Source: Vavraia culicis subsp. floridensis (taxonomy: Eukaryota; Microsporidia; Pleistophoridae). From it: DNA of 64,000 nt. The notes under the pieces were generated by a model. That model was not told where the DNA came from. It saw nothing but the letters and a program-made list of their open reading frames with translations, and did not search any database. The translations under genes were made by a program, and so were the position numbers. The stretch spans positions 1-64,000 of the forward strand of contig NW_007360613.1 of the NCBI RefSeq assembly GCF_000192795.1, read 5' to 3'. Shown here piece by piece: positions 13,428 to 61,106 of this stretch; position 1 is the first letter of the stretch; each line of letters begins with the position of its first letter.

Positions 13428-13996
13428 TTAATTAATTAATCTCTTCTTTGGAAAATTGATACGCTTCTCACCGCTATTCTTTCTGTTGGTTGTTCGAGGA
13501 TATGTCAGCGAGTTCTTCTCACCTGCAGCTCCGAAGTACCTGTAAGCCTTCCTCTTCGTTCTATCGCCACACACCAATACAACATTCTTGAGATCACTAG
13601 ACACTTTAAACAACTTATCTAGCGTGTATATCTCACCTCCAAACTTTTTAACCTTCCTTCTGGCCTCTCTCGATGCAGTCAAGGCCACAATCGTCAATTT
13701 AGGCAAAGTGAACACACGTTCACTGTCCAAGACCTTGCCAACGACCACGATAACCTTACCAGCATGTTCTGCTAGCCTTGCTACCTTAACGGGTTGCCTG
13801 TTATTCCTCGACATCGTCAGCCTTTTTGCTATAGCGTGGATATCTTCATTTTTAGTGTTCTCCGATATCTTTTTAAACAAAGAAAAAAGCGCTAAGTGCT
13901 GGGGATTACGACTACGGGGCTTCCTTGCAGCATCAAAGAGTCTGAAGTTCTTCCTGTGGATCGTCTTTATCTCAATTAAAAATCATCACTTACCAT
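13428..13996 (-). CDS. RPL18: 60S ribosomal protein eL18, two exons
   Basis: The frame contains the eL18 core: KRLTMSRNNRQPVKVARL, VVVGKVLDSERVFTLPKLTIVAL, KKFGGEIYTLDKL and a basic C-terminus with YRYFGAAGE. It continues in frame upstream of the first TTG through a basic N-terminal extension (IHRKNFR...ARKPRSRNPQHLALFSLFKKI) that matches the eL18 N-terminus, but it then meets a stop before any ATG. A GTAAGT directly after an ATG at 13994-13996 and an AG at 13971-13972 define a 23-nt intron. Removing it gives ATG plus 13970-13428, 181 residues, the expected length for eL18. The protein binds 25S rRNA in the large subunit. A CCCTCCC run lies just upstream of the ATG. Confidence 0.88.
13971..13993 (-). 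other. 23-nt spliceosomal intron immediately after the ATG of eL18
   Basis: It starts GTAAGT and ends TTGAG, with a T-rich, A-containing segment (TTTTTAATTG) just before the 3' AG that could hold the branch adenosine. Excision restores the frame from ATG to the conserved N-terminus; without it the frame has an in-frame TGA. Microsporidian introns are known to be tiny and to cluster at the 5' end of ribosomal protein genes. Confidence 0.8.
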
Positions 13997-28549: not shown

Positions 28550-28620
28550 GCATCACTGGTCTAATGGTAGAATTGCTGCTTGCCATGCAGTAGGTCCGAG
28601 TTCGATTCTCGGGTGATGCA
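28550..28620 (+). tRNA. tRNA-Gly (anticodon GCC)
   Basis: A complete 71-nt cloverleaf: acceptor GCATCAC/GTGATGC with discriminator A, D-loop TCTAATGGTAG, anticodon loop TTGCCAT (GCC), and T-arm with GTTCGATTC. It is identical over its whole length to the copy at 58222-58292. Confidence 0.95.
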
Positions 28621-47089: not shown

Positions 47090-50000
47090 ATGATTAATGC
47101 CACCCCCTACTGGGAAATGTCACACTCAACAACCAAAATTCTCATCGCTAATAATTCGTTGGCGGCAATGAAATTCATAATATCGCTTAGCTCGCGCGAT
47201 GTTACGTTCCTGGGCATGGTGACCAGCCATGATCTGCGCTCCAATCAGCTGTACGTTAATTACCTAAATCGTTATTTAGTCGTTGAAAATTACGGTGTTG
47301 ACGAAATTCTGAGGGCTGCCACATATTTCAAACCTGATCTTGTGTGGCCGGGATGGGGACATTCATCAGAGAATTACCTGCTGCCGAAAGCATTGAAGGA
47401 AAGCGGTTATCGATTTATGGGACCGGACGAAAATGCTATGAGAATGCTGGGCGATAAAATCATGAGCAACAGGTTTGCAGAGAGGAACGGCATACCATGC
47501 ATTCCATACACCACGGATATCGGTGCTTTTATGGCGTTCTTTCAGTCCTATGGAACTGCTATGATCAAAAGCAGTGATTCGGGTGGCGGGAAAGGCATTG
47601 AAATCGTTGAAACTCAGGAACAGCTGTCAAATTTCCTAGAGCAGTATGCGAAGCGTGTCGGCACATCCCAACAGTCCGAAATAGTGGTATCCAATGATAC
47701 GGAGTGCGAACACAACCAGGAATTGAACGGCATATCGCCAGAACAGCTATGCATAGCGGATGGAGATGAGCTGGCATATTCTCTGGCAACAACTCCGCTG
47801 GGCATTTCCTCGGAGACAACGGGGCAGAGGAGTGCAGGACAAGGAGAGCAGAACGTTTTTATGACCAAGATAATAAAAAATGCACGACATGTCGAGCTGC
47901 AGGTGGTAAGAGACAACTTTGGCAACGCTGTGCTCCTTGGCACCCGAGATTGCACCATACAACGCAGGCATCAGAAGATAATTGAGGAAGGCCCAGCCAT
48001 ACTGACGGAACAGTTTTATGAGCACATGAAAAGATGTGCCAAGACACTTCTGATAGCTTCCAACTACGTAGGTGTTGCAACCGTTGAGTTCCTCGTGACA
48101 GAACAGCATTTCTACTTCCTGGAGGTCAACACGCGTATCCAGGTCGAACATCCTGTCACAGAGCTAAATGCGCAGGTTAACATTCCCGAGCTGCAGCTGG
48201 ACGTGGCAATGAACAGGAATTTGTGCTTCATGGACGATAAGCAAAGTACGAACCATGTGGTTGCTGCAAGAATCACAGCGGAGGACAACAATTTCAATCC
48301 GCAGACGGGACATGTGAGCGTTTCCTTTCTGCCGTCCAAAAACACGCTGCTGTATTTTTCGGTGCTGAACGGCCAAATCACCGAGCAGAACGACAGCCAA
48401 TTCGGACATGTGTTCGCGTATGGACGGAACAGAAGAGAGGCAACCACAAATTTGATAACGGCACTGATGAATGTCAAAATTACCGGCATAGACTCGCCTA
48501 TACCGCGTGTGCTCGGCATCCTCAAGAGCCGTTTCTTTGCAGAAAACGATTTTTACACGGATACGTTGGAAAGGTTCAGATTTGAAAAGATGAGTGAGGA
48601 GGACATCGCATTCTTTAGCGCGGCGTATTTCCTGATGAGCTCAAACTCGCACGTAAGCTTTGCATACAACGATGATTGCTTCTTTACACGGTGCCATGTC
48701 GTGAGCAGCCATGAAATGCTTGTGGAGCTGAATGGCACGTTCTACAAGATTCGGAGCGTGGAGAGTTGCACATCACGCGTGGACAACAAACAGCCTCGTG
48801 AACAGAGGACCTTTTTCAGCACCTTCACCTTCAATGACAGCCTGGTAACGTTCTCAACCGTATCGCAAAATACCTACAGGATGCTCAATCAAGGATCTAA
48901 CACGTTTACTCTGCTCACACAGAACATAACAGCACCGTTCAACGGTCGAATTGTGGAAATTAACGATGGATACGTTGAGAGAGATGGCGTGCTGTTTGTG
49001 ATAGAAGCGATGAAGACGCGCACACACATCCGGTCCAAAGACAATTTGCTGTACACCAAGCTTAAGACCGAGGGATCGATCGTTAGCGTAGGAGATAACA
49101 TCCTCAAAATAGAAAGCAACAAAATTACGTGCAATACGGCTGCTCGGTTTACCAGGAATTACGATGAGAACGATCTTATGAGATGGACAAGACATTTGCA
49201 TGCATTACCGTCCGTTCTGTACACTTTTCCTGCGGATGAGCGGATATTTGATCTTGTACGGGTGCACTGCATACATGCTATGGGAGTGATTGAGCACTTG
49301 GAGATTGATGAGGAGCAGTGCGTGAGGATTAGAGGCGAATTAGAAAGTGTTTTGGTGAAGAGTGCGGTTGATAAAGACGTGTTGAGGTTTTATTACAGGG
49401 TTGTGAGGATGTGCACTGCTATGGGCATGCACAGAAGCGCTAGTGGCACGTTGGGAGCAGATACAGACATGGAGCAGCAACGAATGGGCATGAATGCCGT
49501 GGATGGTCACGTTGATCACACGGAAAGTGCACCGTTGGACGATGCCAAGTACATGCTGAGCGAGAAAAGTGCACCATTGGACGATGTTGAGTACATGCTG
49601 AGCGAGAAAAGTGCACCATTGGACGATGCCAAGTACACGCGGAGCGAGAAAAGCGCGATATTGCGAAAAAATGAGAGAAAACCGTGTTCAATGAAACTGA
49701 GCGCCTTTCAATCGGTAGATGACCCTGTTGTTGAGCATTTTACCGCACATTCATTCACACACGAGCAGTTCAACAGCAAATTCTGTGCATGTCCACGAAT
49801 AGAGTGCCGCTGCACCGGCCAATACGGCAAATCAATCATAATACGTGCACGAGATGTGACAAACGAACTTATCGTGTTTGTTAAGGTGTTTACCGGCTGG
49901 TCATACGCTCTTTACACGGAGAATAGCACAAACGTTGAAAAGATCAGGCACATGTTCACGAAGATCGTGTGTAACGGGACGGTGTACCTCAGTACGCGCG

Positions 50001-50815
50001 GATATGCTGAAATATTCGTGTATGAAAAGAAAAGAGTACGCGAGTACTACCTTGATGGCTTGAAAGTGAACATTCCTGATGGTATAGACCTTAAGGTACG
50101 GTATGAAGGCTTCTTGTACTTGATGTACATTTATTTGTGCACGATAAATGCTCCGATGTGCTACAAGGAGCTGTTCCTGACCGTTTTTGATGATTGCAGT
50201 AAAACGGTGCCGAGGCGGGTGAATGACCCGGTCAATTCGTGCAAAACCTCGAATTCGGGTGCAAAGCACGGCAACGATCTGGCCGGACAATCGCACTGCA
50301 CAACGAGTACAAACACCAAACACAGCATGCACGGCAACCAAGCATTTCCTAGCGAAGCGGACCTAAACCGGTGCAACGACCGGAAGTACGCACTGTCATA
50401 CGATCGTAAGATCAAAATTGGTGTGTTAGCGTACGTGTTCCACATAAATGGTGAAAACACCGTGTTCGTGATCAACGATTGGAAATTTAAATGCGGTTCG
50501 TTTTCGTATAAGGAGCTGATTTTCTTTCATTTCGTGAATTTGTTGTGCACAACGAGGGAAATGGCACGCATTCATTTCAGCAACAATTCTGGTGCACGGA
50601 TCGGTATCGACGAGGAAGTGATGAGTAAGCTGATTGTGAAGGAGCAACGGGGTGGGTTGGAGCTGTATATGAGGCAGGAAGATCGAGACGGGCTCAGTGG
50701 CAGTTGCACAGGCGGGAAGAGGAGCGGTTCAAGCACAGAAAGAATGGAACACATGCACATGTCCATAAATAGCGAAACTACGGAGGGGAACCGTTCAAAC
50801 GGTGCACGGGATTAA
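47090..50815 (+). CDS. ACC1: Acetyl-CoA carboxylase, N-terminal and central part (frame-broken before its carboxyltransferase core)
   Basis: A biotin carboxylase domain fills residues ~9-560. It has the WPGWGHSSENYLLPKAL and GPDENAMRMLGDK segments, the ATP-loop KSSDSGGGKGIE (160-171), GTRDCTIQRRHQKIIEEGP, and EVNTRIQVEHPVTE (345-358). A biotinyl domain follows with the lysine site EAMKT (Lys642); eukaryotic ACCs usually read EVMKM. The central domain is much reduced and includes a 14-residue repeat in three copies (~812-854). Near the end, HFSNNSGARIGIDEEV (~1162-1177) is the start of the carboxyltransferase domain. The rest of that domain continues in two other frames up to 52058. Full ACC is ~2200 aa; this locus totals ~1650. 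It would make malonyl-CoA. Other biotin enzymes are excluded by the ACC-type carboxyltransferase. Confidence 0.88.
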   Translation: MINATPYWEMSHSTTKILIANNSLAAMKFIISLSSRDVTFLGMVTSHDLRSNQLYVNYLNRYLVVENYGVDEILRAATYFKPDLVWPGWGHSSENYLLPKALKESGYRFMGPDENAMRMLGDKIMSNRFAERNGIPCIPYTTDIGAFMAFFQSYGTAMIKSSDSGGGKGIEIVETQEQLSNFLEQYAKRVGTSQQSEIVVSNDTECEHNQELNGISPEQLCIADGDELAYSLATTPLGISSETTGQRSAGQGEQNVFMTKIIKNARHVELQVVRDNFGNAVLLGTRDCTIQRRHQKIIEEGPAILTEQFYEHMKRCAKTLLIASNYVGVATVEFLVTEQHFYFLEVNTRIQVEHPVTELNAQVNIPELQLDVAMNRNLCFMDDKQSTNHVVAARITAEDNNFNPQTGHVSVSFLPSKNTLLYFSVLNGQITEQNDSQFGHVFAYGRNRREATTNLITALMNVKITGIDSPIPRVLGILKSRFFAENDFYTDTLERFRFEKMSEEDIAFFSAAYFLMSSNSHVSFAYNDDCFFTRCHVVSSHEMLVELNGTFYKIRSVESCTSRVDNKQPREQRTFFSTFTFNDSLVTFSTVSQNTYRMLNQGSNTFTLLTQNITAPFNGRIVEINDGYVERDGVLFVIEAMKTRTHIRSKDNLLYTKLKTEGSIVSVGDNILKIESNKITCNTAARFTRNYDENDLMRWTRHLHALPSVLYTFPADERIFDLVRVHCIHAMGVIEHLEIDEEQCVRIRGELESVLVKSAVDKDVLRFYYRVVRMCTAMGMHRSASGTLGADTDMEQQRMGMNAVDGHVDHTESAPLDDAKYMLSEKSAPLDDVEYMLSEKSAPLDDAKYTRSEKSAILRKNERKPCSMKLSAFQSVDDPVVEHFTAHSFTHEQFNSKFCACPRIECRCTGQYGKSIIIRARDVTNELIVFVKVFTGWSYALYTENSTNVEKIRHMFTKIVCNGTVYLSTRGYAEIFVYEKKRVREYYLDGLKVNIPDGIDLKVRYEGFLYLMYIYLCTINAPMCYKELFLTVFDDCSKTVPRRVNDPVNSCKTSNSGAKHGNDLAGQSHCTTSTNTKHSMHGNQAFPSEADLNRCNDRKYALSYDRKIKIGVLAYVFHINGENTVFVINDWKFKCGSFSYKELIFFHFVNLLCTTREMARIHFSNNSGARIGIDEEVMSKLIVKEQRGGLELYMRQEDRDGLSGSCTGGKRSGSSTERMEHMHMSINSETTEGNRSNGARD
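49526..49651 (+). repeat. 42-bp tandem repeat, 3 copies, coding
   Basis: Three contiguous 42-bp units (49526, 49568, 49610) encode SAPLDDAKYMLSEK three times with a few changes. They lie in the reduced central domain of the carboxylase and keep the frame. Confidence 0.9.
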
Positions 50816-51243
50816 AACACCTAAAATACATCACAACAAACGATGACAGCGGCCCAGAGAACCTGTCATACTCATCACAATCATCTATAAGCACCATCGA
50901 AGCATACAACCGTACCTTCACCCTATCATTCGTAACAAACCACTCGGTAGGCATAGGTGCTTATCTCGCAGTGCTGGGCAAGCGCGTCATAATGAAGAGA
51001 AGCAGCGTTATGCTGCTTACAGGGTACAAGGCGCTGAACAAGCTCAATCAAACGGAGATATACAGCAGTAATGAGCAGCTGGGAGGTGTGGGCATTATGT
51101 GTGGTAATAATGTGTGCCAGAGAGACGTGCTCAACGAGTACGAGGGGCTGTGTGAGATTTTCAGGTGGTTGATGTTTTGGATTGAGGGCAAGAAATCCGT
51201 GCCCGTTCCTCGCGAGCACGCGTGGGGACCAACACATCGGTGA
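50773..51243 (+). CDS. Acetyl-CoA carboxylase, carboxyltransferase segment 1 (second frame)
   Basis: Directly after a stop at 50770 in this frame, the sequence reads KHLKYITTNDDSGPENL, then FTLSFVTNHSVGIGAYLAVLGKRVIM, LLTGYKALNKL and IYSSNEQLGGVGIM. These match the ACC carboxyltransferase core (KYLYL..., SLVTxRxVGIGAYLxRLGQRxIQ, LTGxxALNKxLGxxVYTSNxQLGGxxIM). It carries no credible start of its own. It continues the preceding 1241-codon frame after a shift that must fall between 50773 and 50815. It ends at a stop at 51241, with protein quality fading after ~51185. Confidence 0.75.
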   Translation, partial: RNYGGEPFKRCTGLKHLKYITTNDDSGPENLSYSSQSSISTIEAYNRTFTLSFVTNHSVGIGAYLAVLGKRVIMKRSSVMLLTGYKALNKLNQTEIYSSNEQLGGVGIMCGNNVCQRDVLNEYEGLCEIFRWLMFWIEGKKSVPVPREHAWGPTHR

Positions 51244-52058
51244 ACAGTGGCGCATGTCCAACAACTCGCGGGCAAAGTGATCGTGGACATTCCCTGAAAG
51301 CGATAGACGGGCACAGCACCGGAACAAAGGATGTGTCTAAGCGTGAAGACAGCAAGTACGATGATGAATGCGCAGCACCTGCGCTTTCGTTGAATTGCCG
51401 AGAGGTAATCGAAGTAATCGCACACAACATCACGGAATACTCCTGCGCATACTCCTCAAACATAAAAACGGTACGCTGCTTCATCAAGGACATGCCGGTC
51501 GGTGTAATATACGCATACGAGAACGGCACGTGCGTATTGGATGCACCATCAAGCGAGAAGTTCAGCACCTTCATAGATCAAATCAACAAAGAGAACCTCA
51601 ATCTGGTGATAATGGCCAATTTCAAGGGATTTAGTGGCGGTGACACAGACATGAAGCAGGGCATTCTCAAACAGGGGAGTAAAATCATAGAAAATCTGAA
51701 AACTTTTAGGAACAAGATATTCGTGTACATTGGGTGCGGCTGGCAGGTGCGTGGCGGTACATTCGTAATACTCGACAAGTTTATCAACGAAAGGATACGC
51801 GTGTTTGTGAGCAGGGATAGCCGGATCGGCATCATGCAGCCTAGTGGGCTCTCAGAGGTGAAGTTTAAGGAGAAGGAACGGATCAGAATTTTGGAGAAGA
51901 ACGGCCTGGCGGTGGACGAGCGAAACATAAATGAGCTGGCAATAAAATTCTGTGAGCTCCACGACCATCCTGAGCGCATGGTGTGCAAGGGCCGGGTGGA
52001 TGGCATGCTAGAGATTGGAGAGTTGGAGAGCAAAATATACGAGTATTTCTGCGGATGA
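51186..52058 (+). CDS. Acetyl-CoA carboxylase, carboxyltransferase segment 2 (third frame)
   Basis: It continues the carboxyltransferase domain: DMPVGVIYAYENGTC (GIPVGVIAVExRT), NLNLVIMANFKGFSGGDTDMKQGILKQGSKIIENL (PLxxxANWRGFSGGxxDMxxxVLKxGxxIVxxL), IFVYIGCGWQVRGGTFVILDKFIN (VxVYIPPxxELRGGxWVVxDxxIN), then RIGIMQPSGLSEVKF and a C-terminal FCELHDHPERMVCKGRVD (FADLHDTPGRMxxKGVI). The frame begins after a TGA at 51183. There is no plausible ATG before MPVGVI, so this is not an independent gene. The shift from the second frame falls between 51186 and 51243. The catalytic core motifs are well kept, so any decay would be recent. Confidence 0.78.
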   Translation, partial: GQEIRARSSRARVGTNTSVNSGACPTTRGQSDRGHSLKAIDGHSTGTKDVSKREDSKYDDECAAPALSLNCREVIEVIAHNITEYSCAYSSNIKTVRCFIKDMPVGVIYAYENGTCVLDAPSSEKFSTFIDQINKENLNLVIMANFKGFSGGDTDMKQGILKQGSKIIENLKTFRNKIFVYIGCGWQVRGGTFVILDKFINERIRVFVSRDSRIGIMQPSGLSEVKFKEKERIRILEKNGLAVDERNINELAIKFCELHDHPERMVCKGRVDGMLEIGELESKIYEYFCG

Positions 52059-53382: not shown

Positions 53383-55440
53383 ATGCATAGAACATTCTAC
53401 ACGCTGAGGATAGCAAACATAACATGCGGCTCATGTGTTCCTAAAATACAAAAGTGCTTGAAAAACTTTGAATATGTGAACAATGTAAAGATCAACATCT
53501 TTACGAAAGAGGTTCAGTTAGAGATGCACACCGTGGCTGATAGCACAAAGATTGAGCACATAAAACGTGTCTTGAGCGAAAACGGATTCACGATCTCGGA
53601 TGATCAGAAATATTGGAGAAACATGTTCTACGCTCTCATACTTCTTTACATAATACAAATCGTGATGCACAGAACAATGAACATATTCTGGATGGATCTG
53701 GTGCTCTCTACCGTTATACAGGTTTTATGTTCCCGCAGGATCTTTAGAGGATCGATGGCATTTACCGACACAATCATTCTTGGTTCTCATGCATCATTCA
53801 TTCTTGGCTGCCTCTACGATGCGCAGAGTCTGCAAATTTCCTCTTTAATTCTCGTGATGGTGGTATTGGGCAAGTTTATCCTGGAAATCATAGGTAATAA
53901 GGCCAGTGAATTCCTTAGAACTGGTTTAACGGAATACTACGTATATAACAATGAAAACATAAATTATGAGGAGATAAAAGATGGATACATGATTGTGATA
54001 GAACAAGAAAAGCATATTCTGTTTGACGGAATTGTCGTGGAGGGGTCATCATACGTCGATGAAAGTAACCTGACAGGTGAGATGAAACTGAAAGAGAAGA
54101 AGAAAAACGATTTCATATACTCAGGTACGTACAACAAGGCCGGGTGTGTAACGGTACTGGTTCATAAAGTGGGAAAAGAGACATATTTAGGAAGGATACT
54201 CAGACAGATCGATCATTCTCCTGCTGACCACACCAGTGATATAAGAAGTCTCTTTTATTTCATTATTTTCATCACTATTTGCTCATTTTTGATGTGTTTG
54301 ATCAATTCATCACTCACACAAGCAGTCAAAACAAGTCTTTCACTGCTTATAATAGCGTGTCCGTGTGCTCTTAACATATCAGAACCACTCACAGTTCTTG
54401 TAGGCACCAAGAAACTGTTCGATAACAGTGTTGTTATAAGGGACTTAACTGTTTTTGATAGTTTGGGTGACCTTAATGTCCTATTCATCGACAAGACAGG
54501 AACACTAACGGATGGTACCTTCCGTGTGAAAGATTTTATACCTATCCTATCGCTTGATATAGGCGTCATAAAAGCGCTCATTCATACATTGGAAAAAATG
54601 AGCTACCATCCTGTCGCTAGTGCCCTGGTAGAGTATTGTACATCACCTGTCATTGGAGAGGTGTTAAACTACGAAGTTGTTAGAAGTGGTGTTAGGGGAC
54701 GGGTACTGTACAAAAATGCCCAATACGATGTGCAAATAGGAAATGATGGAATGTTGACGGAGAACAATAGGAATAACCTGCACTTCGTGGCCAATATATC
54801 GATAGAGAATAGCGATAACACCAGCAATACGTTCAAATATTACATCGCAAACGATGATGTAATCGATATTTATGTGGTTATCAATGGTGAGCTGGCATGC
54901 ATCTTTTATTTAGAGGATAAAATAATCAACGGTGCAAAGAGTGCCTTAAAACTGTTGAACGAGCAAAACATCACCACCATAATGCTGACCGGTGATTCAT
55001 ACACGAATGCCAAGAGAGTGGCACACCGACTAAACATAAACAAAGTGTATGCCAGCAAAACAGCAGTACAAAAATCTAAGATCATACAAAATTATAGAAA
55101 GGGACACGTGGTCGGCATGATAGGTGATGGTATAAACGATTACTGTGCTATTGCACAATCCAACATAGGAATTAGCATAGGAAACGTCTTCTCTGAGATC
55201 GGACATGTTTCACTTCTGTGTAAAGATTTACACCTGCTTTACATACTATTGGTGATCGGAAAACGTATAAGAAGAAGGATTATTATCAACTTTACGCTTT
55301 CTATCGTTTACAACGCAGCTGCACTGTTTGTGGGTGTGTTTGGCAGTTATTATGGTTTGTTCATAACACCGAGTATTTCTTGCATGTGCATGTTCTTGTC
55401 CTCACTAACAGTTATAATATCAGCACTTATGTTCAGATGA
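53383..55440 (+). CDS. Copper-type P1B heavy-metal ATPase, 685 aa
   Basis: The N-terminus is a single heavy-metal-associated domain with the metal-binding ITCGSCVPKI (Cys15, Cys18). Membrane helices follow, then the actuator domain with DESNLTGEMKLKEKKKNDFIYSGT, where the usual TGE is present. The transmembrane metal site is CPC (326-328) in IIACPCALNISEP, phosphorylation Asp370 is in DKTGTLT, the HP motif is YHPVASALVEY, and the hinge is GDGIND (581-586). Together these define a P1B-type pump, Cu+ class by CPC, exporting metal from the cytosol into an internal compartment or out of the cell. It is shorter than Ccc2 (~1000 aa), with one metal-binding domain. The sequence after CPC departs from the usual CPCALGLATP. 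Confidence 0.93.
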   Translation: MHRTFYTLRIANITCGSCVPKIQKCLKNFEYVNNVKINIFTKEVQLEMHTVADSTKIEHIKRVLSENGFTISDDQKYWRNMFYALILLYIIQIVMHRTMNIFWMDLVLSTVIQVLCSRRIFRGSMAFTDTIILGSHASFILGCLYDAQSLQISSLILVMVVLGKFILEIIGNKASEFLRTGLTEYYVYNNENINYEEIKDGYMIVIEQEKHILFDGIVVEGSSYVDESNLTGEMKLKEKKKNDFIYSGTYNKAGCVTVLVHKVGKETYLGRILRQIDHSPADHTSDIRSLFYFIIFITICSFLMCLINSSLTQAVKTSLSLLIIACPCALNISEPLTVLVGTKKLFDNSVVIRDLTVFDSLGDLNVLFIDKTGTLTDGTFRVKDFIPILSLDIGVIKALIHTLEKMSYHPVASALVEYCTSPVIGEVLNYEVVRSGVRGRVLYKNAQYDVQIGNDGMLTENNRNNLHFVANISIENSDNTSNTFKYYIANDDVIDIYVVINGELACIFYLEDKIINGAKSALKLLNEQNITTIMLTGDSYTNAKRVAHRLNINKVYASKTAVQKSKIIQNYRKGHVVGMIGDGINDYCAIAQSNIGISIGNVFSEIGHVSLLCKDLHLLYILLVIGKRIRRRIIINFTLSIVYNAAALFVGVFGSYYGLFITPSISCMCMFLSSLTVIISALMFR

Positions 55441-56419: not shown

Positions 56420-57343
56420 GCGGGCTATTCGGTAAGTGGTGCAAATTAGTGTATGGAATGGGTAGAGTTAAAGAGTGTGTGGATATGTAGTACTTGGTGG
56501 AGGGATGTTTTCTTTGTTGGAATAGCACCGTTTTTGGTAACAAATTAGTCTATGGTGTGCGAAAAGTGGTTCAGAAGGTGAAGTAGCAGGCGGTATCTGG
56601 TGCGATGGATGAGAATGGTCGAGATACCGTAGAATGGAACGGATATGATGAGCAATTCAGGCATGCATAGCATGTTTTATGGATATAATTAGTGCATATG
56701 ATGTTTTTGGTAGTGCAGGAGGGTACTTTGTTTGTATTAGTACGAGGATGCTCATCAACCAGGCTTGTTAGTGGACAGACTGGGAGACCNNNNNNNNNNN
56801 NNNNNNNNNCTGATGTGTTAAAGTGCAGGCTATGGATGCAATGGACAAGCAAACACTAAATAAAGCAAAGGTACTAGGATTACGAATAATTATAAAATAC
56901 TTTGCGGTAATGAATGGACAAGAGATGCGGTCTAGAAACTTAAATAAAAATAATCGTGACATCTAGGCAGTGTGCCAGCATCATCTGTTACCATTTGTGC
57001 TGTTAATATGGCGTACTAATCATGGTATATGTACCATGATTATAAATAAAATTACCAAATCATCTACACCGCAAATAATTATGTATTTGGATATTTTACC
57101 GGTACTTTCACTCTTAGGATGGTTGTGTGGTGTAGCTTTTTCGATTAGTGTATCATTTCTAGGGATGAATATGTTTCTTGTTCAAGCGTGTGCATTGCTC
57201 CGTTTTATATTTTTTTCTAATTTTCAAGTCTCTGTCTTGTGCGCAGAACGAAGCGCCACGATTTAAAGCCTCATTTTCACCACGTCTCTCCTTGTTTTAT
57301 CACCTTATCAGTAAAAAAGAAGAACTTCCAAAAAAAACAAACA
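56420..57343. other. Intergenic, includes an assembly gap
   Basis: About 900 bp with short frames and one run of 20 N at 56790-56809. No gene is supported; frames that cross the N run are artefacts. Confidence 0.5.
56790..56809. other. Assembly gap (20 N)
   Basis: Twenty unknown bases, a typical fixed-length scaffold join. The true distance between the flanks is unknown. Confidence 0.97.
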
Positions 57344-58221: not shown

Positions 58222-58292
58222 TGCATCACCCGAGAATCGAACTCGGACCTACTGCATGGCAAGCAGCAATTCTACCATTAGACCAGTGATGC
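58222..58292 (-). tRNA. tRNA-Gly (anticodon GCC)
   Basis: Read on the minus strand, the same 71-nt cloverleaf as at 28550-28620, identical at every position. The flanks differ. Confidence 0.95.
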
Positions 58293-58609
58293 TTGGCATG
58301 GCAGGTATTGCTGTTACATAAATTTGAATAATCGTGCTGCAAACATTCAAAAATGTTAACGGGGACACAAAGGTATTCGATAGCATGATGCAACCTCCTT
58401 AAAAAGCATCCATGAACAAGCGTTGGACAAATTGCTTTCTCATAACAACAAAATATTTGCAGTCTTGAAGGTACAAACGAATTGATTAATGACGGGAACA
58501 GCAGCAAATACGCATCTGCTGCTTATTTGATAGGTTGTTGTTCCATACTTGTGCATTGGTTCATTCCAAAACCGTTTCATAGACCGTGTTAATCCAACTT
58601 ATCAAGCCG
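58293..58609. other. Intergenic, nothing recognised
   Basis: About 320 bp; it should hold the promoter of the downstream plus-strand gene. Confidence 0.45.
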
Positions 58610-60601
58610 ATGTTCACAGGAAATATGAGCGATATGTTCACGACGAGTGAAATCATAAAATATGACAACAAGTGCACGAACAGCGATTTCTTGGCTTTGA
58701 TAGCAGATAAGAACAGCACGCAGCTGAGAGAGCTTTGTTTCAAAATAATGGAAATTAAGGATCCGTTTCATTCACTCAGTCTTTTACTACGGATATATAC
58801 GAACAAACCGTTCATAAATAGCTTGTTTATGGAACGACTGTCGTCCTTAGTACGCGAAGTCAAAGGAGAGAAGTACTTAAGGATAAAAAACCTGGACGAA
58901 CGAGTTTACTGGCTGATGATGCGGCACGCAGAGGAGAACGATGTGCAGGCGATGATACATTGTGCCTCCATCATCAAAATAAACGGTACCAAGCTGGAAG
59001 AACTCAAGAGATATTTTAGTTACAGCTTGGTGTACCAGTACTACAAGAGCATCTGCAAGAACATATTTAAAGAAAAGTACAGAAGACAGGAAATTGCACT
59101 GGTCATACGATTGATGGACAGCGCTTCGCTGTGCTTCAAGAATTTGTACCCGGTTATAAAAAAGATATCGAAATGTGCAAGGCAGAAATCAATTGATAAG
59201 AGTGTCATTGAATGTGCAAAGCTATTGGGATGTGTTATAAAGTATGAACCAAGAGCGGTGCACGACCATCAAGATTATGTTACGTCTGTGTTGTCGTTTT
59301 TGTGCGGTGTTCTGACCGACATAAAAAATTACGTGTTCCTTGGGTTGGAGGATCTTAACGAAATTGTGATAGCTGTGGGACGGATATGCGAGTATGAAAA
59401 AGACAACTTTGGTCTTTCCAAACTTTTAACCGGTTTATACGCCAATTCGTATGATATAATATACAAGTACAACAAGATACGTGCACATCTGGAAGAGGAT
59501 CTTGTCTGTTTGACAGTCAATTTGCAGCTTGTACGTATCCTGTACCGTGTGACATATCATCAGGGACTGAGAGCGTTTAACTACAATCAGTTCTACAATG
59601 ACATTGTCAACTTGAAGTATGGAAAGCCGGTCAATCTGTCGATGCGAAAATACAGGCGTGTACTCAGCACGTTCTATGCGAGTAAGTACCGGCTGTTGGA
59701 CATGGTTTATGACGATCAGTGCTTTAACACAGACATGCTTATTGCAGACATTTCTATGTGTTCCGACTTCTATGGTGTACTTAAAAATTTGAAACGATTG
59801 TTGATGAAGCTGGAGCTGGACAAGCTGATTCGTATTGGTGTAACTGCTGTAAACACATGCGGAGATGTGCACTGCAAATCAGGGAATGGCGACTTATCTA
59901 ATAGGGCGAGTGAGCAGAGAAACGTGGATAAACAGCAAGAAGAGAACACGGATGAACGGAGGGTTGCAGATGGTAGTGTATCGAAATGTAAAAGAGACGA
60001 AAATGCGGAGCGAAATTTGCAACAAGCGATGAGCGGAGAGAAGAACGGTGAGACAATGGGTTGTACCGTGAAAATGAATGGCTCAAAATCGAAGAATAAT
60101 GAGACAATGGGTTGTACCGTGAAAATGAATGGCTCAAAATCGAAGAACAATGAGACAATGGGTTATACCGTGAAAATGAATGGCTCAAAGTCGAAGAACG
60201 GATCAGATGCAACAGCAGTGAAGAATGATCCATCCTTTGACGAAAAAAATTACGTGTTTTTGATAAAATTTGCCTTGAAGCGCTGTTTTCTGGATCAAAA
60301 TGACTTTAAAGCAAATGTGGAACTTTACAAAAAGTTTTTGGTGGATAAAGGACCTTCATTGGTCCTGCTGGCAACGAGTGCATTTGCCAGGAACATGGAA
60401 GATCTGAAATACACGGATGCTCATCTCGATCTACTGTCATTTATGTTTGTGCTACATCTCAATGATAGAAATAACAGAATTGTACGCAAGAAGGAGAAAG
60501 TTGTAATTGCTGCCTACGATGCACTGGCCAACGGCGAAAAGATCATATTCATGAAAAAACGTGTTCACGAATCTCGAAAATCTGAAGTACTACGAATTTA
60601 A
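58610..60601 (+). CDS. Large alpha-helical protein, first part (unknown; frame-broken)
   Basis: From the ATG at 58610 the frame runs 663 codons. The sequence is mostly leucine-rich amphipathic helices with Lys/Asp and little beta or low complexity, the look of a HEAT/ARM-type scaffold. Residues ~420-530 are a polar linker holding a 17-residue tandem repeat (NETMGCTVKMNGSKSKN, three copies). The frame then resumes helices and ends abruptly at 60601. The same style of sequence continues at once in another frame (60555-61106), so this is probably one gene of about 830 codons with a single-base indel near an A6 run at 60554-60559. I do not recognise the family; nucleolar or transport scaffolds are possibilities only. 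Confidence 0.75.
   Translation: MFTGNMSDMFTTSEIIKYDNKCTNSDFLALIADKNSTQLRELCFKIMEIKDPFHSLSLLLRIYTNKPFINSLFMERLSSLVREVKGEKYLRIKNLDERVYWLMMRHAEENDVQAMIHCASIIKINGTKLEELKRYFSYSLVYQYYKSICKNIFKEKYRRQEIALVIRLMDSASLCFKNLYPVIKKISKCARQKSIDKSVIECAKLLGCVIKYEPRAVHDHQDYVTSVLSFLCGVLTDIKNYVFLGLEDLNEIVIAVGRICEYEKDNFGLSKLLTGLYANSYDIIYKYNKIRAHLEEDLVCLTVNLQLVRILYRVTYHQGLRAFNYNQFYNDIVNLKYGKPVNLSMRKYRRVLSTFYASKYRLLDMVYDDQCFNTDMLIADISMCSDFYGVLKNLKRLLMKLELDKLIRIGVTAVNTCGDVHCKSGNGDLSNRASEQRNVDKQQEENTDERRVADGSVSKCKRDENAERNLQQAMSGEKNGETMGCTVKMNGSKSKNNETMGCTVKMNGSKSKNNETMGYTVKMNGSKSKNGSDATAVKNDPSFDEKNYVFLIKFALKRCFLDQNDFKANVELYKKFLVDKGPSLVLLATSAFARNMEDLKYTDAHLDLLSFMFVLHLNDRNNRIVRKKEKVVIAAYDALANGEKIIFMKKRVHESRKSEVLRI
60050..60202 (+). 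repeat. 51-bp tandem repeat, 3 copies, coding
   Basis: Units start at 60050, 60101 and 60152, nearly identical, encoding a 17-residue repeat in the polar linker of the helical protein. Confidence 0.9.
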
Positions 60602-61106
60602 TCCGTTCCTTGTCTCATTCGTTCTTACGTTCGACAAGGAAGTAGAAAAGACGGAAAACGTCTTCATCAAGTACTTCTTGAACGCACTGGAATGGAACAA
60701 AGATAAAGAGGAGAGGGCATGCGAAGCAGACCAATCAGATAAAGATGGTGATCAAGTGGTTATGGACACATATTCGAGAATATACGTTTCACTTGTGTGC
60801 TATGTCTGTATGAAATATAGGTTGCGAACCGCTGTCCATCTGACGAGTTATTACGGTGTGATCGTGATGCTGATAAATTGTATAGAACAGCCGTGTAACG
60901 ACGATTACGTGAACGCAATGAAGACGAACATCCTTGGAATCGTTTTTGATTTGGATGAAAAACGGAGGGATGATGTAAAGGCACTTTACTCCACCTTTTT
61001 AAAAGATAAAGAAAGTGAAAACATGTCTGATTACCTGCGTTTTTACAGAAAGTTTTCGAAAAAGATGGAAAAAAAAATGAAAAGAAGCGTAGATAGGAAA
61101 AGATGA
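60555..61106 (+). CDS. Large alpha-helical protein, C-terminal part (second frame)
   Basis: This frame opens after a TGA at 60552 and reads KNVFTNLENLKYYEFNPFLVSFVLTFDKEVEKTENVFIKYFLNALEW..., then SRIYVSLVCYVCMKYRLRTAVHLTSYYGVIVMLINCIEQ, and ends in a basic KKMEKKMKRSVDRKR tail. There is no ATG before residue ~60, and the only early initiator is GTG. It joins smoothly to the preceding frame if one A of an A6 run is removed. The basic end could be a nuclear or nucleolar signal. Confidence 0.65.
   Translation, partial: KNVFTNLENLKYYEFNPFLVSFVLTFDKEVEKTENVFIKYFLNALEWNKDKEERACEADQSDKDGDQVVMDTYSRIYVSLVCYVCMKYRLRTAVHLTSYYGVIVMLINCIEQPCNDDYVNAMKTNILGIVFDLDEKRRDDVKALYSTFLKDKESENMSDYLRFYRKFSKKMEKKMKRSVDRKR

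What the first reader, a model, noticed from the sequence alone, without database searches (positions are those of the whole stretch)
50773..51243. Acetyl-CoA carboxylase broken by two shifts in the same direction
A 1241-codon frame with intact biotin carboxylase and biotinyl motifs is followed by the carboxyltransferase core in a second and then a third frame. Both changes are the same kind (-1 or +2), about 400 bp apart, and the motifs on each side are well kept. Options: sequence error, very recent pseudogenisation, or programmed -1 frameshifting. I see no classic slippery heptamer and no GTAAGT intron in the two shift windows (50773-50815 and 51186-51243).
Basis: partly seen in the sequence, partly recalled or inferred. 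Interest (0 to 1): 0.75.

Follow-up and report, generated by a model that had tools for sequence, protein, structure and literature searches.

The report
Frameshifted carboxylase, probably assembly errors
A fat-metabolism enzyme gene of a mosquito-infecting microsporidian reads in three pieces in this draft genome, but a close relative carries it in one piece and the draft was made with a method prone to single-base errors, so the breaks are most likely errors in the draft.

Summary
One acetyl-CoA carboxylase (ACC) gene (window 47117-52058, +) lies in three frames, with changes of the same sense (-1 or +2) near 50800-50815 and 51186-51205. The genome is microsporidian; both published Vavraia culicis beta-tubulin primers match it exactly, and that species' assembly was made from 454 reads with Newbler (passages). 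A close relative, P0001, encodes all three pieces in one frame of 1624 residues, so the frame changes are not conserved. At columns shared by at least 6 of 8 other ACCs, 240 of 240 residues agree between window and relative, 97 of them after join 1. Biotin ligase and elongase domains are open in one frame in the same genome. Other genes of this assembly are broken by frame changes too: one 6.5 kb downstream, of opposite sense, and a kinase on another contig. Best reading: two uncorrected indel errors in a 454 draft of a working ACC gene (about 0.72). A real, very recent lesion is the main rival (about 0.22); programmed frameshifting is unlikely. No reads were seen; Illumina RNA reads exist for this species and should settle it.

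The parts
47117..50815 (+). ACC piece 1: biotin carboxylase, biotinyl motif and first part of the carboxyltransferase; the open frame begins at 47090, the relative's start aligns at 47117
47129..47440 (+). Biotin_carb_N (PF00289) match
   Evidence: residues 14-117 of window:47090-50812
47822..48223 (+). ATP-grasp part of biotin carboxylase (PF02786) match
   Evidence: residues 245-378
48266..48571 (+). Biotin_carb_C (PF02785) match
   Evidence: residues 393-494
49004..49018 (+). biotinyl motif E-A-M-K-T
   Evidence: read; that this motif is the biotin site is recalled knowledge
50800..50815 (+). join 1: the relative's frame passes from the first to the second window frame here (-1 or +2), at the end of a linker insert
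50773..51243 (+). ACC piece 2: carboxyltransferase core in the second frame
51186..51205 (+). join 2: second to third frame, same sense, at the start of a second linker insert
51186..52058 (+). ACC piece 3: carboxyltransferase C-terminal part in the third frame
58610..61106 (+). second frameshifted gene (frames 58583-60601 and 60555-61106), unknown function, shift of the other sense; points to a wider indel problem in the assembly
56790..56809 (.). 20-base assembly gap (N) between the two broken genes

Best explanation
The gene is a single-copy eukaryote-type acetyl-CoA carboxylase of the microsporidian Vavraia culicis, most likely working. It would make malonyl-CoA, most likely for the fatty-acid elongase, since no ketoacyl-synthase domain was found in the held genome. 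The two frame changes are uncorrected single-base indel errors in a 454/Newbler draft, both next to linker inserts of the carboxyltransferase. Shown: three frames here, one frame in the relative, strong protein conservation through both joins, other frame-broken genes in the same assembly. Inferred: that the errors arose in sequencing or assembly; that the enzyme is made; its role in elongation.
For: Relative P0001 is open over all three pieces: 1131 of 1236 (35 gap positions), 128 of 129 and 276 of 290 positions identical. At columns shared by at least 6 of 8 other ACCs, 240 of 240 residues agree between window and relative, 97 of them after join 1. Both V. culicis beta-tubulin primers match exactly, 104 bp end to end; window GC 39.0% against 39.7% printed, HMM coding share 30385 of 64000 bases against 47% printed. 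That assembly is 454 Titanium with Newbler at 31x on average. Frame breaks elsewhere: gene 58610-61106 and a split kinase on C6. In another 454 microsporidian draft, N. ceranae, the authors joined 58 ORF cases by hypothesising single-base assembly errors (passages). Biotin ligase and ELO domains lie in open frames.
Against: No reads were seen. Homopolymer runs in the two overlaps are only 3-4 bases, while in one 454 study about 60% of errors sat at runs of 5 or more and most run-associated errors were insertions; 47.5% of random coding 12-mers hold a run of 3 or more anyway. At the background rates estimated here (one shift per 23-56 kb of coding sequence), two shifts in this one gene have P of 0.004-0.02. 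No stop lies inside 27 of 27 Helicase_C, 20 of 20 scored AAA, 8 of 8 CCT or 6 of 6 class I synthetase matches, so breaks are not common. A kinase on C31 with an in-frame TGA suggests that real pseudogenes also occur. The held genome (5.63 Mb, 80 contigs) differs from the printed one (6.1 Mb, 379 scaffolds).
Confidence: 0.72

Rival explanations
1. The two shifts are real and very recent: V. culicis floridensis (or the sequenced stock) has just lost ACC, as other microsporidia lack it.
For: E. cuniculi lacks ACC while S. lophii, T. hominis and N. parisii have it (passages), so loss is a known outcome; a kinase gene with an in-frame stop exists in the same genome; short runs at the joins are not typical 454 error sites; two shifts in one gene are rarer than the background rate predicts for a gene named beforehand.
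Against: No column of the conserved set has changed (240 of 240); nothing but the two frame changes interrupts the match to the relative; the biotin ligase domain is open; a second gene in the window and a kinase elsewhere carry frame breaks as well.
Confidence: 0.22
2. Programmed ribosomal frameshifting or transcriptional slippage, twice, yields one protein from three frames.
For: Both shifts have the same sense and protein-level conservation continues after each.
Against: The 92-99% identical relative has one frame; no X XXY YYZ heptamer at either join, against four in the zero frame over 3650 bases of the rest of piece 1; the joins lie next to variable linkers.
Confidence: 0.02
3. Short introns or split genes: spliced pieces, or separate polypeptides, from the three frames.
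For: V. culicis is reported to have 27 spliced genes (table).
Against: No donor or branch motif of the kinds scanned lies near the joins; the relative's protein runs through without interruption; the frames cut the carboxyltransferase domain in the middle.
Confidence: 0.02

Closest known systems
Single-chain acetyl-CoA carboxylases of microsporidia (Nematocida, Astathelohania, Binucleata, Conglomerata; Spraguea lophii and T. hominis reported in PMC3749934)
   Same: Biotin carboxylase and carboxyltransferase domains in one chain, no PF08326 among the precomputed domains of the named microsporidian rows listed, conserved carboxyltransferase columns
   Different: In this assembly the carboxyltransferase is spread over three frames; longer linker inserts than in the eight ACCs aligned
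Single-base frameshift errors in a 454 draft of a microsporidian (Nosema ceranae: 58 cases of adjacent ORFs; 2,614 predicted genes; passages of PMC2685015)
   Same: 454 reads; adjacent ORFs matching parts of one protein
   Different: Here two joins in one gene, at short runs; not checked against reads
Programmed -1 frameshift genes (recalled as a class, no call)
   Same: Overlapping frames and conservation on both sides
   Different: No slippery heptamer at the joins and a close relative in one frame

Membership tests
Eukaryote-type acetyl-CoA carboxylase | Biotin carboxylase domains (PF00289, PF02786, PF02785) | tested here: met
Eukaryote-type acetyl-CoA carboxylase | Carboxyl_trans domain PF01039 | tested here: met
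   met in pieces 2 and 3, which lie in different frames
Eukaryote-type acetyl-CoA carboxylase | Biotinyl lysine motif | tested here: met
   EAMKT at 49004-49018 by reading; the biotinyl domain model PF00364 was not reported for piece 1
Eukaryote-type acetyl-CoA carboxylase | One open frame in this assembly | tested here: not met
454 assembly indel artefact | Close relative in one frame | tested here: met
454 assembly indel artefact | Assembly made from 454 reads | tested here: met
   Method from passages; that G000 is this assembly is inferred, and its size and contig number differ from print
454 assembly indel artefact | Frame breaks in unrelated genes of the assembly | tested here: met
454 assembly indel artefact | Breaks at long homopolymers | tested here: not met
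   runs of 3-4 in the ACC overlaps; a run of 6 in the second gene's overlap
454 assembly indel artefact | Raw reads disagree with the consensus | not testable with these tools
   no reads held
Programmed -1 frameshifting | Slippery heptamer in the zero frame | tested here: not met
Programmed -1 frameshifting | Frame change conserved in close relatives | tested here: not met
   one relative seen
Pseudogene | Relaxed constraint or further lesions | tested here: not met
   protein level only, the relative's DNA is not held

The most novel reading that the evidence does not exclude
The shifts are real in V. culicis and the enzyme is still made, through two site-specific frame changes (ribosomal or transcriptional slippage) at short runs beside two linkers: a recoding found in this species only, while its close relative reads straight through.
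Probability: 0.03. Interest if true: 0.75.

Novelty: not a real feature. Interest (0 to 1): 0.12.

Why it matters
If these are errors, gene models in this draft can be cut short at such joins: the database protein of the second broken gene ends at the frame change (P0241, 663 residues), and counts of which microsporidia keep ACC could go wrong. If the lesion were real, it would catch a parasite in the act of losing its malonyl-CoA supply.

Tried and rejected
Programmed frameshifting: no heptamer at the joins, relative in one frame. Intron: no donor or branch motif of the kinds scanned. A second copy in the genome: a search with P0001 finds only this locus, 4 matches, all on C10. Old pseudogene: rejected on conservation. 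Alternative genetic code: not tested, because the joins are frame changes, not stops within one frame.

Homopolymer association was looked at and is weak: short runs in the ACC overlaps, with 47.5% of random coding 12-mers holding a run of 3 or more. No structure prediction was run, because sequence matches already say what the protein is. dN/dS was not computed, because the relative's DNA is not held.

The frameshift detector is blunt. At its default penalty it found join 2 and the second gene but not join 1; at a laxer penalty it found both joins. It recovered 67 of 144 test shifts at the default. Outside the window (five stretches of 40 kb) it called two shifts at the default: one in a low-complexity gene on C3, one in a short, dubious gene on C1. 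Laxer penalties added a window candidate near 13979, one on C4 and, at the laxest, further calls that I did not follow.

Full report
What is there. The window is the first 64 kb of contig C10 of a 5.63-Mb genome in 80 contigs. Its genes include an 'aberrant zinc-finger' protein (PF17017; its restriction to microsporidia is recalled), topoisomerase II, an HSF-type protein and a tyrosine phosphatase. ACC lies at 47117-52058 on the + strand in three frames.

Which organism. The two beta-tubulin qPCR primers that Desjardins et al. 2015 give for Vavraia culicis (PMC4435813; passages and the tables section seen) match the genome exactly, once each, facing each other over 104 bp of C9. The window's GC of 39.0% and HMM coding share (30385 of 64000 bases) fit the printed 39.7% and 47%. 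The printed assembly is 6.1 Mb in 379 scaffolds; the held one is smaller and in fewer pieces, perhaps because short scaffolds are left out. T. hominis THOM_1825 is only 56% identical to another window protein, so this is not T. hominis. I take it as V. culicis, probably subspecies floridensis; the primers alone would not exclude a very close sister. The paper says the genome was sequenced with 454 GS FLX Titanium and assembled with Newbler, mean depth 31x.

The relative. A database search with piece 1 gave P0001, 1624 residues, longest contig 29,850 bases, no name; the best topoisomerase II hit, 98% identical, is listed with a contig of the same length, so probably the same contig. P0001 matches piece 1 at 1131 of 1236 positions, 35 of them gaps, piece 2 at 128 of 129 and piece 3 at 276 of 290, in one frame throughout. 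Its cluster holds 3 sequences; I saw only the representative. By my reading the relative also has four more residues beside join 1, so that linker changes length between the two.

Constraint. I aligned P0001 with eight other ACCs out of the 14 listed next after it (six from named microsporidia, two unnamed). Where at least 6 of 8 share P0001's residue, the window agrees in 240 of 240 columns: 143 in piece 1, 43 in piece 2, 54 in piece 3. Other aligned columns agree in 1063 of 1127, and insert columns in 232 of 250. So the gene has been under selection for most of the time since the two lineages split, including the parts after both joins. The set was chosen on the relative's own residues, and this is protein-level evidence only. 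Both joins fall at the edges of inserts; insert columns make up 254 of 1624.

Background of frame breaks. Gene 58610-61106 in the same window is also in two frames: P0242 matches both pieces in order (38% each), and T. hominis P0243, labelled partial, matches both (56% and 58%). This shift has the opposite sense (+1 or -2); its overlap holds a run of six A, with an AAAAAAC heptamer that is not in the zero frame. Among 34 kinase-domain matches, two on C6 overlap in different open frames, a split kinase; one on C31 holds an in-frame TGA, covers only profile positions 128-263 and looks like a decayed copy. Against this, no stop lies inside 27 of 27 Helicase_C matches, 20 of 20 scored AAA matches (of 40 candidates), 8 of 8 CCT matches (6 of them cover at least 487 of 490 positions, two end at 394 and 410) and 6 of 6 class I synthetase matches. 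With the kinases that is 55,515 matched bases with one clear shift, or two if C31 counts. A coding-HMM scan of 97,940 coding bases outside the window called two shifts, one of them dubious, with a detector that recovers 67 of 144 test shifts. Together this suggests one shift per 23-56 kb of coding sequence. Two in ACC then have P between 0.004 and 0.02 for a gene named beforehand. By my own arithmetic (no call), some 540 stretches of this length make up the coding part of the genome, so a few such cases are expected by chance. The gene was picked because it is broken, and errors may cluster where read depth is low; a 20-base gap lies at 56790-56809, between the two broken genes.

Literature. 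In the 454 draft of Nosema ceranae (PMC2685015, passages) 58 cases of adjacent ORFs were joined by hypothesising single-base assembly errors. In a 454 GS 20 study of plastid genomes (PMC1564139, abstract and passages) over 97% of errors were tied to homopolymers, about 60% at runs of five or more, and insertions outnumbered deletions; this fits the second gene better than the ACC joins, where runs are of 3-4 bases. S. lophii, T. hominis and N. parisii have ACC and its biotin ligase, while E. cuniculi lacks it (PMC3749934, passages). A review (PMC11426481, passages) says microsporidia have lost fatty acid synthase. A search for 'Vavraia' with 'acetyl-CoA carboxylase' returned only PMC3749934; I did not find V. 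culicis ACC discussed.

Function. The same genome has a biotin ligase domain (C41, E 3.2e-9) and one ELO elongase match (C46, E 8e-47), both in open frames, and no ketoacyl-synthase match. So ACC most likely feeds malonyl-CoA to elongation. This is inference from known pathways.

Verdict. Two uncorrected indel errors in a draft genome are the best explanation (0.72). A real, very recent lesion is the main rival (0.22). Recoding and introns are each about 0.02.

Noticed in passing
window 58583-61106 (+): A gene of unknown function, with relatives in T. hominis (P0243) and an unnamed source (P0242), is split over two frames; the database protein P0241 stops at the frame change.
   Followed up: yes
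L026 21-1501 (-) (G000:C6:157900-159400): A protein kinase gene split between two overlapping frames within the kinase domain, one more frame break in this assembly.
   Followed up: partly
L027 259-774 (-) (G000:C31:2700-4400): A kinase-like stretch with an in-frame TGA and only the C-terminal half of the domain matched; looks like a decayed copy.
   Followed up: partly
window about 49520-49655: Near-repeats of SAPLDDAKYMLSEK occur three times in a row in an ACC linker here but once in the relative P0001.
   Followed up: no
hits: The named microsporidian ACCs in the listing lack the central domain PF08326 that many other eukaryote ACCs in the listing carry (precomputed Pfam column).
   Followed up: no
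P0002: A protein named as from the plant Tanacetum cinerariifolium ranks second to this microsporidian query (372 bits); possible chimera or contamination.
   Followed up: no
window 28550-28620 (+) and 58222-58292 (-): Two tRNA-Gly (GCC) genes with the same Rfam score in one 64-kb window.
   Followed up: no
G000:C3:51916-56504 (-): A long, low-complexity gene with a probable frame change near 55437; no homologue tested.
   Followed up: no
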